Assembly: GCF_017115165.1 (NCBI RefSeq)
Contig: NZ_JABXKF010000139.1
Span: 123,638 to 187,637, forward strand
Source of the DNA: Nostoc sp. LPT
Lineage (GTDB): Bacteria; Cyanobacteriota; Cyanobacteriia; Cyanobacteriales; Nostocaceae
Reading direction: 5' to 3'
Length of the DNA stretch: 64,000 nt
Positions within the stretch are counted from its first letter, which is position 1. Each line of letters starts with the position of its first letter. Made by a program: the position numbers and the translations under genes. Under the pieces are notes generated by a model, which was not told the origin of the DNA, did not search any database, and saw only the letters and a program-made list of their open reading frames with translations. Positions 31,101-38,391 of the stretch are shown here, piece by piece.

Positions 31101-31834
31101 GGGATTTGGTAAGTGAGATTTACTAGAAATTGATGAAATTCGACGGAAGAGGCATTGCTGTTTGATGCTTTTATCTGCCTGGGAAGGAAATGTCTCAACT
31201 AAAGTTCGATTGTGATTTCATCGTAACTTCTCAAGAAATTATTAGTCATTAGGAAGTCAAAAATTTACTATTTACGTTTTTATACTAAACATTTTAGTTT
31301 AACAGGTTTTGAGTATCTTAGCTGCGATCGCCCCAGCTTCCATTTTCGCTATCTTGATTTTCTACAGGACTAACAACTTATTGATGGTGCTTACCGAAGA
31401 ATGGATAGCTTTTACAATATCTACAATATTCACTTTGAGTAGCAGAGGTGGCATCTGTGTGGTGGAAATATTTAAAATACCCCGCTTTTGTCACTCTCCG
31501 AAAACTTTTGCCATAGAAAACTGCTGTAGTTAATAAAAAATAATTACCAACTGTAACTTTTTTGTAACGATTCAGGTGCAGGGATAGGGCAAATGCATCT
31601 CAATTTTGACAAACTGGTAAGTAGAGGTGTGTTTAAAGTAGTATAAATAGACTAAATGACTAATTAAGTGAGCGATCGCTAGTTCTACCTCTTTCAATAA
31701 ATCCTAAATATGTCAGAGATTGCTGATTTCTCGGCTTCTAAGCTTTTGTCGTTAGATTGCGATCGGGGTTTGCGGTGCAGTTTCCGAAATAAGCAGGCGC
31801 AGGGATGCGTTGATGTTTAATATAAACCTGTTTT

Positions 31835-34141
31835 TCAATTTTCAATTAATACCTTTGCCACTTTTTGTAGCAAAGATGATTGACTATTATCACTGATCTT
31901 TAAAACATTTTGAGTTAATGTACTAAAATGTAAAGCTGTGATAGGATGCTCGATAAGTTCAGATGTATGAATTGGCGTTTGGGAATATGTCTTCCCAATC
32001 AAATGATAAACTCTAAACCCTTTATTAAGAGAACTATCCATATTTTTACCAGGCGGAACATAATACTGAACAAATATTTTGTTTTGCAAATCAAAACATA
32101 TCATATTTTGTATTCGCTTAATGGGTCTAACTTCACCACTATAATACGATACCAAGGGGAATAATCTACTACTATTCTCATCTTGAATTTCTCGGTTAAT
32201 TTTTAAAGTTCCCTTTTCCATGTCTTCAATAATACCATTGCGTCCAATTAAAGTTGGTGTATAAAAGTCATTTGTATAGCAACTAATATATAACTGCTCC
32301 GATTCATCTACAAAATATTGTTGATCGTCAATTAACTTTTCTGACTTATTTTTCTGTCTTCTTAAAAATGGAAATTCCTTTTCGATCTGTTTCATATCGC
32401 GCATTATATTTTTAATATATATGCAACTATCTTTATATAAGAATTCTACTGCTACTGCTTTAGCTTTCTTTTTTCGTGGGCTACGTACATATATAGTAAA
32501 AAACTTTTTTTCGGTAAATGATTGAGGAGCAATTTGCAAGCCAAAGCTAGAATCTACAAGACTTTGCCTCATCCAATTCTTAATTCCCAATTCAATCAAG
32601 ACCTTCTGAAATTCAGGTGCAATATTTACCTTGTAATTATCGCAGAAATTTTTCCATTGTTCGCCATCTGTTTGACCTTTTAAATAGCATAAAATAGAAT
32701 CCTCTACGTCCAAAAATTTCCCATTCGTAAAAGCTTGTGTATCCTGGCGCAGAGTATCTTCATCAATTTTCTTATCTATATAATTGAGAACAGACCCAGA
32801 ATATTTTACTCCAACAGCCCTAAATTCTGTTATGTTTATCCCCTGTGTGCTAAAAAACTCTCCTGTATCCAAATATTTAAATTTTCTCTTTAACTGTGAA
32901 TAGAAATCTACTTTCACTTTATTATCTATTTGTGTTGATGGATACCAGAAACCATCGTCTTTCTGGTAAGCCATTGAACCCACTTCTTTCTCCAACTGTT
33001 TATTAAAAACTAAATAATTTTTTCCCTTATCAAGTTTAATATTCGACCAGGAAACCACTTCAGTAATTTTCCAGCAAGGCTCGTCCTCATTTTCCACTAC
33101 TTGTTCATAAGTACTAACAGTCTTTCCTGAATTATAAAATGTGAGTAAAAATATCCCTTGATGTTTAAGAAAATTTTTCATAAATTGTTTGTCAGATTCA
33201 GTCAGATCAATTCCCGTATTGTTAATAATCTCTAATAATTCTACAGATTCTATATTTTTGATAAAATGGTTTTCTAAGTAATGGTCAGCCTGAAAATGAA
33301 GGAGATTAAAATTAATACCACACTCACTTAAAAAGCTCTCAAGTTTTGTCATAAGATTTTGATAATGATAAACCTGAGTCTTTTTGAACTTGTCAAAATC
33401 TTCCTGAACTTTAGGAAATTGCATAAAATGAATAGAATTTTGGCGACGAGCATCAAGGTCACGTTCAAAGTAGTAGTTCTTATTTTTATAGACTAACAAC
33501 TCTCCCAAATCATCACTATCTGTAGTTATATACTCATCATTTGGTAACAATAGTCGCCTTTTTCGAGATAAGGTTAATGTGAGTACATTATGGTTGTTGT
33601 ATTTGATTAAAAGATTCTGTCCCCAGACTATTAGAGCATTTTCTGATTTGCTAAGACTCCTAGAATGCTGTAATAGTAATTCCTCAAATCCATTCATTGT
33701 TTCTACAGATAAACCTTGAGACAGAAGATAAAATTTAAAAACTAAGTTAAAAATTCTTTCTTGATTCTTACTAAATAACTGTTTCCATCCAGAATGACTA
33801 TTATTTGGGGATAAAAAGAACACATTTTTTTTATCATCAACGTAGGAAAGAAAGTATTGAATATCTGAATATTTAGATTTTACTCCATTCACAGAAAGTC
33901 GTTCTTGTATTTGACTTTTAATGAATTTATGCCGTTTTTTATAATAATTAGTCTGTGAATCTTCATCTTGGGAATTCTCATCTTCAGGAACTTGATATTC
34001 AGGAGTAAAATGCTCAATCCCTATATTGTTCTTAAACAGATATAGGAAAAGTTTTTCAGCAACCTCTTCTGGCTTCATTAATATCTCTAACTGGTTGGTT
34101 CTTGATTTATCTGAGAATGCTTTAGTCATTTTATCTTTCAT
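31835..34141 (-). CDS. Large protein of unknown function (~768 aa), second gene of a helicase-nuclease operon; provided ORF begins at 34210 but the ATG at 34141 is the likely start
   Basis: Intact ORF; AGGAAAATAAAATG junction places its ATG one nucleotide after the upstream TAA stop. Confidence 0.8.
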   Translation of the reverse strand: MKDKMTKAFSDKSRTNQLEILMKPEEVAEKLFLYLFKNNIGIEHFTPEYQVPEDENSQDEDSQTNYYKKRHKFIKSQIQERLSVNGVKSKYSDIQYFLSYVDDKKNVFFLSPNNSHSGWKQLFSKNQERIFNLVFKFYLLSQGLSVETMNGFEELLLQHSRSLSKSENALIVWGQNLLIKYNNHNVLTLTLSRKRRLLLPNDEYITTDSDDLGELLVYKNKNYYFERDLDARRQNSIHFMQFPKVQEDFDKFKKTQVYHYQNLMTKLESFLSECGINFNLLHFQADHYLENHFIKNIESVELLEIINNTGIDLTESDKQFMKNFLKHQGIFLLTFYNSGKTVSTYEQVVENEDEPCWKITEVVSWSNIKLDKGKNYLVFNKQLEKEVGSMAYQKDDGFWYPSTQIDNKVKVDFYSQLKRKFKYLDTGEFFSTQGINITEFRAVGVKYSGSVLNYIDKKIDEDTLRQDTQAFTNGKFLDVEDSILCYLKGQTDGEQWKNFCDNYKVNIAPEFQKVLIELGIKNWMRQSLVDSSFGLQIAPQSFTEKKFFTIYVRSPRKKKAKAVAVEFLYKDSCIYIKNIMRDMKQIEKEFPFLRRQKNKSEKLIDDQQYFVDESEQLYISCYTNDFYTPTLIGRNGIIEDMEKGTLKINREIQDENSSRLFPLVSYYSGEVRPIKRIQNMICFDLQNKIFVQYYVPPGKNMDSSLNKGFRVYHLIGKTYSQTPIHTSELIEHPITALHFSTLTQNVLKISDNSQSSLLQKVAKVLIEN

Positions 34142-34142
34142 T

Positions 34143-37100
34143 TTATTTTCCTGTTTGGAATAAAAATTTTTTGAGTATATTAGATTCGACTGGAATATTG
34201 TAGCGATCAAAGTAAATCAAATTGCCTGAAAATAAGGTTGATGAGTATTGATGATTTTTTTCTTGTTTTGCGTGCAAATTTAGAAGTAAACCTTTCACAG
34301 TAATAAATTCTGGATAGTCTGAAACAATAGCATTCAGCTTTTTTTGGGTTTTTTCCAACGTCTGATTTGAAAGGCGATTTCCCGAAGCTATACTCCATGC
34401 TTTAACATCAATACAAAACAGCGTATTGTCCTTGATATAGTACAAATCAAACCGCTCATACAACTTGGGATATTTTTTGAAATCTAACAATTGCTCAAAA
34501 CCGTAGGTGTCTTTTATAGCTTTCCAGTCTTTATCTTTGAAAACTACATCTTTAATCCAGCGTTCCGTGAAATTTTCGGTCAGTGATGGATACAACACAT
34601 CATAAAAGAAATGTGGACGCGGAATGTAATTATTAAAAATTTCCGGTTGTGGGATCAACTCGTTGTACAATCTGTAAATTGAATCAGTTGAAGGATTCAA
34701 CAAGCCAATTTCATTTCCTTCTAAGTCATAGCTTTGAGCGTTTGTTTTGAGATATTCAGGATATAACCGCTTCTGATAAGGATAGATTTTTTCTCCATTG
34801 ATGCTATCACTGATAATCTGAAACTTTTTCCCATCTTCCTTTACAGAAGCTAAATATGGGGTAAATTCAGATTGTTCAACGTTGTGATAAAATAATGAGT
34901 CAAGAAATTCATCAGGAAATAGCTTTAACTCTCTTAAATTTTTTAGATATCTATCTGGCTCTTTAAAAACAACAGGCTCGCGTAAAGCATTCCACTTTTT
35001 TGTGATAGCAAAGGTATTGTTATCTTGGTGATGGTGAAAATTATCAATTTCATCTAACATTTTTTCTCTAAAGTTTTGGAAATATAGAAAAGCATTAGCC
35101 TCATGATAAACATGCTCATCATAATCATTAATTACTCTTTTTTTCTCTTCTTCTTGAACACTTAAATAAACTTTGTAATTATTAACGGAAAATTTACGGA
35201 TTTCATTAGGTTCTTCTTGCTTCAGATATCTGTAAAAATTCACTAAATTTTTTCTGGTTTCTTCATTTACAAAAATTTTAATCGCTTGGTTGGGAAAATC
35301 ACGTCTCTCAGATCTGCCAATAGCTTGCAAAATTGCTTTTCCTAATAAAATTTGGTGTTGCTGGTCTCGAAATGCTCCAGCTTCTGGTTGACTCAGATAT
35401 TTGTTGAAATCTTTGATTTCCAGATTAGAGTCTCCCAAATTTACAATACTTTTCATCAATGCAAAATGATAACGTGTCGTAGATTTCTCAGACTCTTTTG
35501 ATTTCTTAAGTGATGGTTTCATGACTGTATAGTAACTGTCCATTAACAAAACCAAAGAGTCAAAATCTTTTTCATCGCCGTTGTGATTTTTTATGATAGG
35601 GTTCAATCCTTTTGATGCTGACTGATAAGCCGAGATAAAGAAAATTTTCTGCCCTTCTTCTTCAACAAGCTCATTCAAATATGTTTTTTTAGTTGTTTTA
35701 TCAAAGTAAAGACTATTGAAGGATGCTTCATAAAAAATTATTTTAATACGAATATTACTCTGATATTTTTTATGCCTTAAGTTGACGTAATATATGTTTG
35801 GATGTTCTGATGATTTCTCAAGTCCAAAGTTACCATGATGAAGTTTATCCCAAAAATTCATCAACTTTTTAATCCAGCGTAGGGTTTGAGTAAAAGCGAT
35901 TGTTTCTTTAATTAAATCTTCTTCAAAGAGGTAAAATAAAAAACGAATAAAATTTTTTATTTCTTGAATTTTGTAAATACTAAACCAAGTACCATCATTT
36001 TTACAATCATTAATAAAATCTTTTAAAATATTGTTTTCAAATCTTTCTGCAACTTCTTGAGTTTTGTTATTGGGAAAAGATGATAAATTTTCGTTGAAAA
36101 AACTTACTGTAATCTGTCGCTTGGAACCACGCTGATTTCTGATCTCTTCACAAAGCAATATTTCTTCTTCAACCATTGCCTTAAATGAACTTTTACCAGA
36201 TTCATTACGTAAATTATCTTCTAAATAACGCATATCATAACTTGTACTTAAATCTCCAAAGACCCCTCCTGTTGCTGAGATAAGAAAAATTACATTACTA
36301 TTATTACATAACATTGAATTTATCTTGAATTCTGGTGAGGTCAATATTGCAGTACTCCCAATAGAAACTTCCCTAAGCGTGTGATCAATCAAGTTATTTT
36401 TGGGATTTTGATAACGAGAAATTTCTTTAATATTTATGATAGACTTATAACTTTCATAGACATAGGTACGGTTTAAGTATTTTAGCAGTTGATTTGGTAA
36501 TGAGCTTTCTTCACTTGCTTTTTGGACTTTAGCTATCTGTTTTGACCAAATATCTAAAGAACGAGATTGAGAATCTTCAGCATCTAAAACATTAGCCAGA
36601 AAATCTTTGATGGTTTTGATTTGTAATCGAACAGTCAGAATGGCATAAATCAATTCTGCTACAGAGGTATTGTCTGCAATTTTTTCCTCAGTTATGTGAA
36701 CATGACCACCGGCAGGTCTGGTTAAAAACAATTTTTTCAGAGATTCAATATTGTAGATGTATAGGTTGTTATATGAGAAAATGCTCATCAATTCATCACT
36801 GATTTTGTTGTAAAGCTGCTGAGGAATCAATAAACTTCTATTGTTCTCAAATTTTGAAAAAACTCTGCATAACATTTCAAAATTTAATACAATGGGATTC
36901 TCTTGCTTGGAATCATTTAAAATTGCAATAATTTCTTCCCTTGATTTATCAAGCCCTTTTTTAATCGTTACTACCTTTTCTAAAAATTTGATAGAGTTTC
37001 CTTCCTCGAAGGTTAGCCGTTGATATACGGGGGCAAACTTTTGCAATTTTGGGTCAATATCTTTGTTTTTATCAAAATGTTCTTGAAATTCGTGGAAAGC

Positions 37101-38087
37101 TCCTTTATTCTTCTCTACAAAATTTAGAAATTCTCTGTTTTGAATAGAAAAAAGAATAGAAAGTTCCCTAGTAATAGATGATAGTGCATTATTAATTGCC
37201 AACATTTGAGGTGAGATGATATCAATTTTTTTATCTAGCATAATTTGATAACCATCTTCCTGCTCATCAAATGCAAGGATAAACTTTCTGGAGTTATTCG
37301 TGTGCTGAATAATGTATTTGTCAAGCTCGTTGCTTTTTTTTACCCATGTTTTATCTTTATAGACAAAGTATGGAATAAAGGTTTCAAATTTATCATAAGT
37401 AAGCATTAAAATACCAGATTTATCTTGCAGGAGATGAAGGGGAAAAAATATCTCAATTAACTTTAAACATTCATCAGTCCAACTTGAACGCTCCAATTTA
37501 GATTTGATTGTAAATTCTAAAAAGTCTTCAAGTAAATTATTTATTTCACGTCTTGCTTTTGTAGTCTCAGAGCTATTCAATTCCTCATCTCCAAAGCCCA
37601 CAGTTTTGATATACTCAAGACGGCTTATGACTTTTTCTACTGTCTTAAGTTTTTGTTGATTTTCCTGAACCTTTTCATGAGGATATACTTTTGGATCAAT
37701 CTTCCAAAACTGTTTATTTTTAAGGATTGAATGTATACATTTTTTGTATAATTTTATATATTTATCCGCCATTTTCATTTCTAATGAATTTAGTTTATAG
37801 ACGGGAATATCTGGATATTGAGTAACGATTGAATTTGGAACACATAAATGTTCTCTTAATGGGGCAACATATATTCCAATTATCTGAGTATTTGGATACT
37901 GTTGAATCGTTTTATAAATTGCTTGAAACAATTGGTGAGTCTTTCCTGACCCTGTACCATAATTGATGAGTTTGAGTTGGGAACGGTTTTCTCGAAAACT
38001 ATCTTCAATTGTTGTAAGGTAGGAATTCAGAATTTGGGAACGAGCAGATTCTGAATGCTGGCTAAAAGAGTTTTGTGGCTTTTGCAT
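34143..38087 (-). CDS. SF2-helicase-like protein with a C-terminal PD-(D/E)XK-like nuclease domain
   Basis: Walker A GTGSGKT; motif II-like LAFDEQED; motif III-like LISATGG; motif V-like SAYQSASKGLNPI; motif VI QAIGRSERRD; C-terminal FDLYYIKDNTLFCIDVKAWS. Confidence 0.85.
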   Translation of the reverse strand: MQKPQNSFSQHSESARSQILNSYLTTIEDSFRENRSQLKLINYGTGSGKTHQLFQAIYKTIQQYPNTQIIGIYVAPLREHLCVPNSIVTQYPDIPVYKLNSLEMKMADKYIKLYKKCIHSILKNKQFWKIDPKVYPHEKVQENQQKLKTVEKVISRLEYIKTVGFGDEELNSSETTKARREINNLLEDFLEFTIKSKLERSSWTDECLKLIEIFFPLHLLQDKSGILMLTYDKFETFIPYFVYKDKTWVKKSNELDKYIIQHTNNSRKFILAFDEQEDGYQIMLDKKIDIISPQMLAINNALSSITRELSILFSIQNREFLNFVEKNKGAFHEFQEHFDKNKDIDPKLQKFAPVYQRLTFEEGNSIKFLEKVVTIKKGLDKSREEIIAILNDSKQENPIVLNFEMLCRVFSKFENNRSLLIPQQLYNKISDELMSIFSYNNLYIYNIESLKKLFLTRPAGGHVHITEEKIADNTSVAELIYAILTVRLQIKTIKDFLANVLDAEDSQSRSLDIWSKQIAKVQKASEESSLPNQLLKYLNRTYVYESYKSIINIKEISRYQNPKNNLIDHTLREVSIGSTAILTSPEFKINSMLCNNSNVIFLISATGGVFGDLSTSYDMRYLEDNLRNESGKSSFKAMVEEEILLCEEIRNQRGSKRQITVSFFNENLSSFPNNKTQEVAERFENNILKDFINDCKNDGTWFSIYKIQEIKNFIRFLFYLFEEDLIKETIAFTQTLRWIKKLMNFWDKLHHGNFGLEKSSEHPNIYYVNLRHKKYQSNIRIKIIFYEASFNSLYFDKTTKKTYLNELVEEEGQKIFFISAYQSASKGLNPIIKNHNGDEKDFDSLVLLMDSYYTVMKPSLKKSKESEKSTTRYHFALMKSIVNLGDSNLEIKDFNKYLSQPEAGAFRDQQHQILLGKAILQAIGRSERRDFPNQAIKIFVNEETRKNLVNFYRYLKQEEPNEIRKFSVNNYKVYLSVQEEEKKRVINDYDEHVYHEANAFLYFQNFREKMLDEIDNFHHHQDNNTFAITKKWNALREPVVFKEPDRYLKNLRELKLFPDEFLDSLFYHNVEQSEFTPYLASVKEDGKKFQIISDSINGEKIYPYQKRLYPEYLKTNAQSYDLEGNEIGLLNPSTDSIYRLYNELIPQPEIFNNYIPRPHFFYDVLYPSLTENFTERWIKDVVFKDKDWKAIKDTYGFEQLLDFKKYPKLYERFDLYYIKDNTLFCIDVKAWSIASGNRLSNQTLEKTQKKLNAIVSDYPEFITVKGLLLNLHAKQEKNHQYSSTLFSGNLIYFDRYNIPVESNILKKFLFQTGK

Positions 38088-38391
38088 TACGTGTCATAGC
38101 TTGATTTAAAGTAATACATAATACCTAAGCTTGCTTAACTGACATATCTTTAGCTCAAGGCGGTTGAAATCGCTGTATATTAGGGCAAATTTGGACTGCA
38201 CTTACTATATATAAAACTTTTCTTAAATCTCAAAAATATACCAGAATCCTCCGTTGATTTACCCAATCTGTCATAAATATATAACAAATATCCGTGTAAT
38301 TCACCCTGATATTTAGAACTTTTGCGAATATCATTCACTAGCGCTACTCGACTCTATCGATAGCTGTACAGACGCGCTCCTAACTTCTTCT

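What the first reader, a model, noticed from the sequence alone, without database searches (positions are those of the whole stretch)
31835..38087. Two-gene operon: SF2-helicase plus PD-(D/E)XK-like fusion, translationally coupled to a large unrecognised protein - candidate undescribed defence module
Seen: the 1314 aa protein has Walker A GTGSGKT, DEQE, SATGG, a motif-V-like SASKGLNP and QAIGRSERR, plus a C-terminal FDLYY..LFCIDVKAW signature of a restriction-type nuclease. The downstream ~768 aa ORF starts one nucleotide after the helicase stop (TAA-A-ATG) with AGGAAA as RBS, so the two are probably made together. I cannot place the 768 aa protein in any family. The pair is visibly AT-richer than its neighbours and sits between unrelated surface-protein genes. 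Known: helicase-nuclease fusions paired with a large second subunit recur in anti-phage systems (for example DISARM, Hachiman and pPIWI-RE modules). Inference: this is a two-component nucleic-acid-targeting system. The pPIWI-RE comparison rests on architecture only.
Basis: partly seen in the sequence, partly recalled or inferred. Interest (0 to 1): 0.9.

Follow-up and report, generated by a model that had tools for sequence, protein, structure and literature searches.

The report
Cyanobacterial ApsAB-type plasmid defence pair
This is a two-gene bacterial defence system, a DNA-unwinding-and-cutting enzyme plus an Argonaute-like guide protein, that belongs to the already described ApsAB family, which destroys plasmids in E. 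coli; the cyanobacterial copy is a new example rather than a new kind of system.

Summary
In detail: two adjacent, co-directional genes on the minus strand encode a 1314 aa SF2 helicase fused to a PD-(D/E)XK nuclease, and a 768 aa protein starting one base after its stop. No library hit either protein (Pfam, PADLOC, NCBIfam, PDB sequences), but it is not undescribed. Relatives in E. coli match the published antiplasmid system ApsAB (Zongo et al. 2024, PMC11096173) at every published residue position, and every ApsAB key residue is kept in the window pair. All 49 loci with both full-length genes carry them adjacent in the order A-B; the two trees agree (distance correlation 0.98). An AlphaFold model of the 768 aa protein has DdmE, the plasmid-targeting Argonaute of DdmDE, as its six best PDB matches. 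The ten significant matches of the helicase's C-terminal half are all DdmD. The pair lies in a ~7.0 kb, 31.6% GC insertion; two relatives have the flanks joined by about 135 bp, and only 2 of 53 genomes of the genus carry it. Most likely mechanism: Argonaute-like, probably catalytically dead ApsB finds plasmid DNA with a guide and recruits ApsA to unwind and cut it. Verdict: new member of a known kind, antiplasmid rather than proven antiphage.

The parts
34143..38087 (-). apsA-like gene, 1314 aa: SF2 helicase with C-terminal PD-(D/E)XK nuclease
   Evidence: Foldseek of residues 540-1314: all ten hits with E<=1e-3 are DdmD
37938..37958 (-). Walker A GTGSGKT, residues 44-50 (K49 = ApsA K221)
   Evidence: alignment A5, K invariant in 37 of 37
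37257..37268 (-). Walker B DEQE, residues 274-277 (E275 = ApsA E533)
   Evidence: D and E invariant in 37 of 37
36264..36278 (-). motif III SATGG, residues 604-608
   Evidence: SAT invariant in 37 of 37
35301..35327 (-). motif VI QAIGRSERR, residues 921-929
   Evidence: Q, G, R, E, R invariant in 37 of 37
34338..34577 (-). PD-(D/E)XK nuclease core E1171, D1214, D1227-x-K1229, K1250
   Evidence: all invariant; D1214, D1227, K1229 = ApsA D1420, D1433, K1435
31835..34141 (-). apsB-like gene, 768 aa, DdmE/Argonaute-like protein
   Evidence: AF2 model pLDDT 78.5, pTM 0.78; best PDB folds DdmE
34139..34152 (-). coupling junction: AGGAAA ribosome-binding site and TAA-A-ATG
   Evidence: one-base gap also in L012, L015, L017, L023
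32840..32908 (-). MID-type guide 5'-end pocket, D412-x-Y414-x3-K418-x14-Q433-G434
   Evidence: Y, K, Q, G invariant in 38 of 38; same as ApsB Y409, K413, Q431
32579..32593 (-). fourth pocket residue, E517-L-x-x-K521
   Evidence: E[LI]xxK in the homologues, = ApsB K489 read without the aligner's gap
31838..31840 (-). invariant C-terminal residue N768 (= ApsB N743)
   Evidence: N is the last residue in 38 of 38 aligned proteins
31375..38374 (.). about 7.0 kb AT-rich insertion that holds the pair; empty site in two congeners
   Evidence: L058 and L059 join window 31374/31352 to 38375/38376 with about 132-140 bp between

Best explanation
The pair is a cyanobacterial ApsAB system, a branch of the ApsAB/DdmDE group of Argonaute-helicase-nuclease plasmid defence. 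Inferred mechanism: ApsB (768 aa), an Argonaute-fold protein that keeps the guide 5'-end pocket but lacks a recognisable full PIWI catalytic tetrad, loads a short guide and pairs with plasmid DNA. It then recruits ApsA (1314 aa), which loads on the displaced strand, moves along it using ATP and cuts it with its C-terminal nuclease, so that the plasmid is lost. Shown here: gene architecture, invariant active-site and pocket residues, fold matches to DdmE and DdmD, consistent pairing, recent horizontal gain. Shown by others for E. coli ApsAB: plasmid elimination that needs the ATPase, the helicase lysine and the ApsB pocket lysine, with partial need for the nuclease. Inferred for the window: guide type, recruitment and that this copy is active.
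For: E. coli relatives L005/L006 carry GFGKS218, DELH532, SAT823, QAVGRVER1140, D1420, D1433, K1435 and (L005) ApsB Y409, K413, Q431, K489, N743 exactly as published. Each maps to an identical residue in the window pair (K49, E275, S604-T606, Q921-R928, D1214, D1227, K1229; Y414, K418, Q433, K521, N768), invariant in 37-38 homologues apart from the fourth pocket lysine, which is read as an ungapped ELxxK motif. A profile-guided scan found 45 loci from cyanobacteria to Enterobacterales; all 49 loci with both full-length genes have them in order A-B, most with gaps of a few bases. ApsA and ApsB trees share their main clades, r = 0.98 over 41 pairs of rows. Foldseek: ApsB model best matches 9bgk, 8u3k, 9ezy, 9ixm, 9iw3, 8u0j, all DdmE, E 4e-13 to 4e-9; ApsA residues 540-1314 match only DdmD at E<=1e-3. 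PMC11096173 itself reports ApsAB-like systems in cyanobacteria. Defence context: Shango SngABC beside the pair in 7 loci; AbiE also in the L009 island.
Against: No direct test of the window copy. It is only about 20% identical to E. coli ApsA/ApsB. Profiles of either family do not hit DdmD or DdmE by sequence in the PDB, and TM-scores are moderate (0.39-0.51 for ApsB against DdmE, 0.30-0.33 for the ApsA fragment), so membership in DdmDE proper is not shown. Zongo et al. judged ApsB to lack a PIWI fold and to differ from DdmE. No guide nucleic acid is known for any ApsB.
Confidence: 0.9

Rival explanations
1. The pair is primarily an antiphage system in cyanobacteria: the same Argonaute-helicase-nuclease machine aimed at phage DNA rather than plasmids.
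For: Homologues sit in defence islands beside Shango, AbiE, type I restriction and TIR genes. Phage replication intermediates could be targeted by the same chemistry.
Against: E. coli ApsAB had no effect on eight phages, while it removed several plasmids (PMC11096173). DdmDE likewise targets plasmids (PMC12409362). No cyanophage data exist.
Confidence: 0.12
2. It is a fused variant of the pPIWI-RE three-gene system (REase, DinG helicase, pPIWI-RE).
For: Same three functions: restriction-type nuclease, SF2 helicase, PIWI-like protein (PMC3702460). One of 35 homologues has a weak PADLOC hit to pPIWI_RE_REase, E 0.03.
Against: No Pfam pPIWI-RE, MID_pPIWI_RE, Y or Z domain in any of 35 ApsB-like proteins. 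Gene order and number differ. Solved-structure matches are DdmD and DdmE, not DinG.
Confidence: 0.03
3. The pair is a degenerate or silent remnant that does nothing in this genome.
For: Relatives with truncated copies exist (L003, L004, L010, L026-L028, L030). Zongo et al. note many partially deleted systems.
Against: Both window frames are full length without stops and keep every invariant residue. The sister locus L011 keeps both genes at 84-87% protein identity.
Confidence: 0.05

Closest known systems
ApsAB antiplasmid system of E. coli ST38 (Zongo et al. 2024, Nat Commun 15:4093, PMC11096173)
   Same: Same two genes in the same order, same helicase and nuclease motifs, same Y-x3-K...QG...K pocket and terminal Asn, continuous family of homologues that connects the two. 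The paper already lists cyanobacterial members.
   Different: About 20% identity. Cyanobacterial ApsA is about 250 residues shorter, largely at its N terminus; ApsB carries a longer stretch between Q433 and K521. Activity of the cyanobacterial branch is untested.
DdmDE of Vibrio cholerae and Lactobacillus casei
   Same: Two-gene plasmid defence with a DdmD SF2 helicase-PD-(D/E)XK nuclease and a catalytically inactive Argonaute DdmE (PMC12409362); best fold matches of both proteins.
   Different: No detectable sequence similarity by profile search. DdmE is reported to lack the Y-K-Q-K MID motif that ApsB has.
pPIWI-RE three-gene systems
   Same: PIWI-like protein with helicase and REase (PMC3702460).
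   Different: Separate REase and DinG helicase genes, different domains, no family match.

Membership tests
ApsAB | apsA-apsB operon, A before B, overlapping or nearly so | tested here: met
   TAA-A-ATG in the window; all 49 loci with both full-length genes
ApsAB | ApsA SF2 helicase motifs GxGK(S/T), DE, SAT, QAxGRxER | tested here: met
ApsAB | ApsA C-terminal nuclease D...D-x-K | tested here: met
   D1214, D1227, K1229 align with D1420, D1433, K1435
ApsAB | ApsB Y-x3-K-xn-QG-xn-K motif and C-terminal Asn | tested here: met
   38 of 38 for Y, K, Q, G and N; fourth K in the ELxxK motif
ApsAB | homology to the characterised E. coli ApsA and ApsB | tested here: met
   joined through profile searches, alignments and trees
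ApsAB | plasmid destabilisation | not testable with these tools
   shown for E. coli members only (PMC11096173)
DdmDE | DdmD-like helicase-nuclease fold | tested here: met
   ten of ten significant Foldseek hits, residues 540-1314
DdmDE | DdmE-like Argonaute fold | tested here: met
   six best Foldseek hits, prob 1.00, TM 0.39-0.51
DdmDE | sequence relationship to DdmD or DdmE | tested here: not met
   profile hmmsearch of PDB chains finds neither; no PADLOC hit
DdmDE | DNA-guided recruitment of an autoinhibited helicase dimer | not testable with these tools
   known for DdmDE from PMC12409362
Argonaute (catalytically active) | PIWI DEDX catalytic tetrad | tested here: inconclusive
   only D612 is an invariant acid in the PIWI part; first strand ends in invariant R553; no structure superposition was possible
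pPIWI-RE | pPIWI-RE, X, Y or Z Pfam domains | tested here: not met
   no match in 35 ApsB-like members
pPIWI-RE | three genes: REase, DinG helicase, pPIWI-RE | tested here: not met
   two genes; REase fused to the helicase

The most novel reading that the evidence does not exclude
ApsB is a distinct Argonaute clade that shares DdmE's fold but, unlike DdmE, keeps a complete 5'-phosphate-type guide pocket and an invariant C-terminal residue. It may therefore load a different kind of guide (for example 5'-phosphorylated RNA) while handing the target to the same DdmD-type helicase-nuclease. That would make ApsAB a second, differently guided solution to plasmid destruction.
Probability: 0.3. Interest if true: 0.6.

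Novelty: new member of a known kind. Interest (0 to 1): 0.32.

Why it matters
It places an unannotated cyanobacterial operon in a plasmid-defence family with published mutants, and supplies a broad, well-aligned set of homologues. Modelled with that set, the second protein has DdmE and other Argonautes as its nearest solved folds, whereas the founding paper judged ApsB to lack a PIWI domain and to differ from DdmE. Two systems described as separate are therefore probably one structural group, which makes the guide question for ApsB directly testable. Practically, such loci may be a barrier to plasmid-based genetics in cyanobacteria.

Tried and rejected
PADLOC, Pfam, NCBIfam and PDB-sequence scans of the pair and its homologues gave nothing above noise. 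A viral-contig scan with four ApsB sequences found no relative. pPIWI-RE was tested and rejected. Target-site duplications, terminal inverted repeats or an integrase at the edges of the 7 kb insertion were looked for by a short exact-match scan; only 9-12 base matches were found, so the route of gain is unknown. Sequence-level comparison with a DdmD/DdmE family alignment was not done because no such sequences were at hand.

Full report
What is there. On the minus strand of a cyanobacterial contig (own genome G000, 8.6 Mb), gene 1 (34143-38087) encodes 1314 aa and gene 2 (31835-34141) 768 aa. They are joined by AGGAAA...TAA-A-ATG. The one-base gap recurs in L012, L015, L017 and L023, so it is a conserved arrangement.

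Why the libraries are silent. Neither protein has a significant match in PADLOC (2023), Pfam, NCBIfam or the sequences of the PDB, nor have their homologues. In a spread of 386 cyanobacterial genomes gene 1 occurs only in the window's own. The first useful lead was tblastn against plasmids: very distant hits in Acidovorax, E. coli and Comamonas, each for one gene; the other gene lay next to it in Acidovorax and E. coli.

The family. The E. coli pair is held at 80% or more of its length by 142 of 5,426 complete genomes, all on chromosomes, annotated as hypothetical. An alignment of three helicases found 45 more loci in cyanobacteria, beta- and gammaproteobacteria. All 49 loci with full-length copies of both genes have gene 2 directly downstream of gene 1, most with gaps of -4 to +50 bases (gaps outside this come from over-long mechanical starts or one broken copy). 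Trees of the two proteins give the same main clades and a distance correlation of 0.98 over 41 loci; both are FastTree trees and deep joins are unsure.

What it is. Folded with 35 homologues, the 768 aa protein gives a model of pLDDT 78.5 and pTM 0.78. Its six best PDB matches are all DdmE from DdmDE work (E 4e-13 to 4e-9), followed by Piwi and Argonaute structures. Residues 540-1314 of gene 1 (pLDDT 76) match DdmD in all ten hits with E<=1e-3. Literature then led to ApsAB, an antiplasmid system of E. coli ST38 (PMC11096173). The E. coli loci fetched here are that system: GFGKS218, DELH532, SAT823, QAVGRVER1140, D1420, D1433, K1435 of ApsA and Y409, K413, Q431, K489, N743 of ApsB fall on exactly those positions. 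In the window these are K49, E275, S604-T606, Q921-R928, D1214, D1227, K1229 and Y414, K418, Q433, K521, N768, conserved across 37-38 homologues. The fourth pocket lysine needs one alignment remark: MAFFT opens a gap after E-L, so K489 is printed opposite R525, but the ungapped E-L-x-x-K motif is shared.

How it probably works. Published for E. coli ApsAB: it eliminates high- and low-copy plasmids and reduces conjugation of pOXA-48; K221A and E533A abolish activity, K1435A is partial, ApsB K413A abolishes it; no effect on eight phages (PMC11096173). Published for DdmDE: DdmE, a catalytically inactive Argonaute, uses DNA guides to find plasmid DNA and recruits DdmD, which moves along the displaced strand and cuts it (PMC12409362). 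By homology and fold the window pair should work this way. The guide, the recruitment step and activity of this copy are inferred. In the PIWI part only D612 is an invariant acid and the first strand ends in invariant R553, which fits a dead PIWI domain and leaves cutting to ApsA; this is inference without superposition.

An amendment to the literature. The ApsAB paper concluded from predicted models that ApsB lacks a PIWI fold and differs from DdmE. With a broad alignment and the DdmE structures released since, ApsB's nearest solved neighbours are DdmE and then Argonautes. Later papers outside the held library may already say so.

How it got there. The pair has the lowest GC of all ORFs of at least 300 aa in the window, 0.31. 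Two congeners (L058, L059) carry the left flank to 31374/31352 and the right flank from 38375/38376 with only about 132-140 bp between, so some 7.0 kb was inserted. L011 has the pair with the same right flank. One other genome of the genus has it in surroundings without similarity to the window's flanks, within the short stretch fetched; 51 of 53 lack it. This is the patchy pattern of a mobile defence gene. No integrase or clear repeats mark the ends.

Context elsewhere. Shango genes (SngABC, PADLOC) lie beside the pair in seven loci from several genera, upstream, downstream or inverted; the ApsAB paper describes this for E. coli islands. Betaproteobacterial loci have one or two ~560 aa genes directly upstream, the nearer overlapping apsA by four bases in three loci.

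Verdict. Real, correctly read, and biologically meaningful, but a new member of the ApsAB family and the wider ApsAB/DdmDE structural group rather than an undescribed system.

Noticed in passing
L002:6954-10543, L054:6342-9926, L032:6350-9926, L029 upstream of apsA: Betaproteobacterial ApsAB loci carry one or two paralogous ~540-580 aa genes directly upstream; the nearer one overlaps apsA by 4 bases in L002, L054 and L032 and has a short Glyoxalase_8 (PF20066) match of about 40 residues. They may be an extra subunit or regulator of this branch.
   Followed up: partly
L009, L031, L033, L037, L038, L041, L044: Shango genes are adjacent to the ApsAB pair in seven loci of several genera, on either side and in either orientation, which suggests repeated co-selection of the two systems.
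   Followed up: partly
L021 (Thiotrichaceae MAG): A copy from a gammaproteobacterial MAG branches with the cyanobacterial clade in both trees; either horizontal transfer or a mis-binned contig.
   Followed up: no
L034:13747-16029 and L036:4598-7267: Pseudomonas loci have a PifA-like protein downstream (PADLOC E 1e-69) and a GajB-like UvrD helicase upstream, further defence neighbours.
   Followed up: no
window:29835-31100 (-): The 421 aa protein downstream of the pair has a long C-terminal repeat (QPTQLPQTNYGNNGL type); alignments with congeners suggest that the repeat number varies.
   Followed up: no
L003:9000-13706: In the E. coli plasmid pSTEC639_1 copy apsA is broken into three frames while apsB is intact; chromosomal copies are whole.
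   Followed up: partly
L038:7507-9495: A SecA-like DEAD protein of 662 aa (PF07517) lies just upstream of a betaproteobacterial ApsAB pair, unusual in such a neighbourhood.
   Followed up: no
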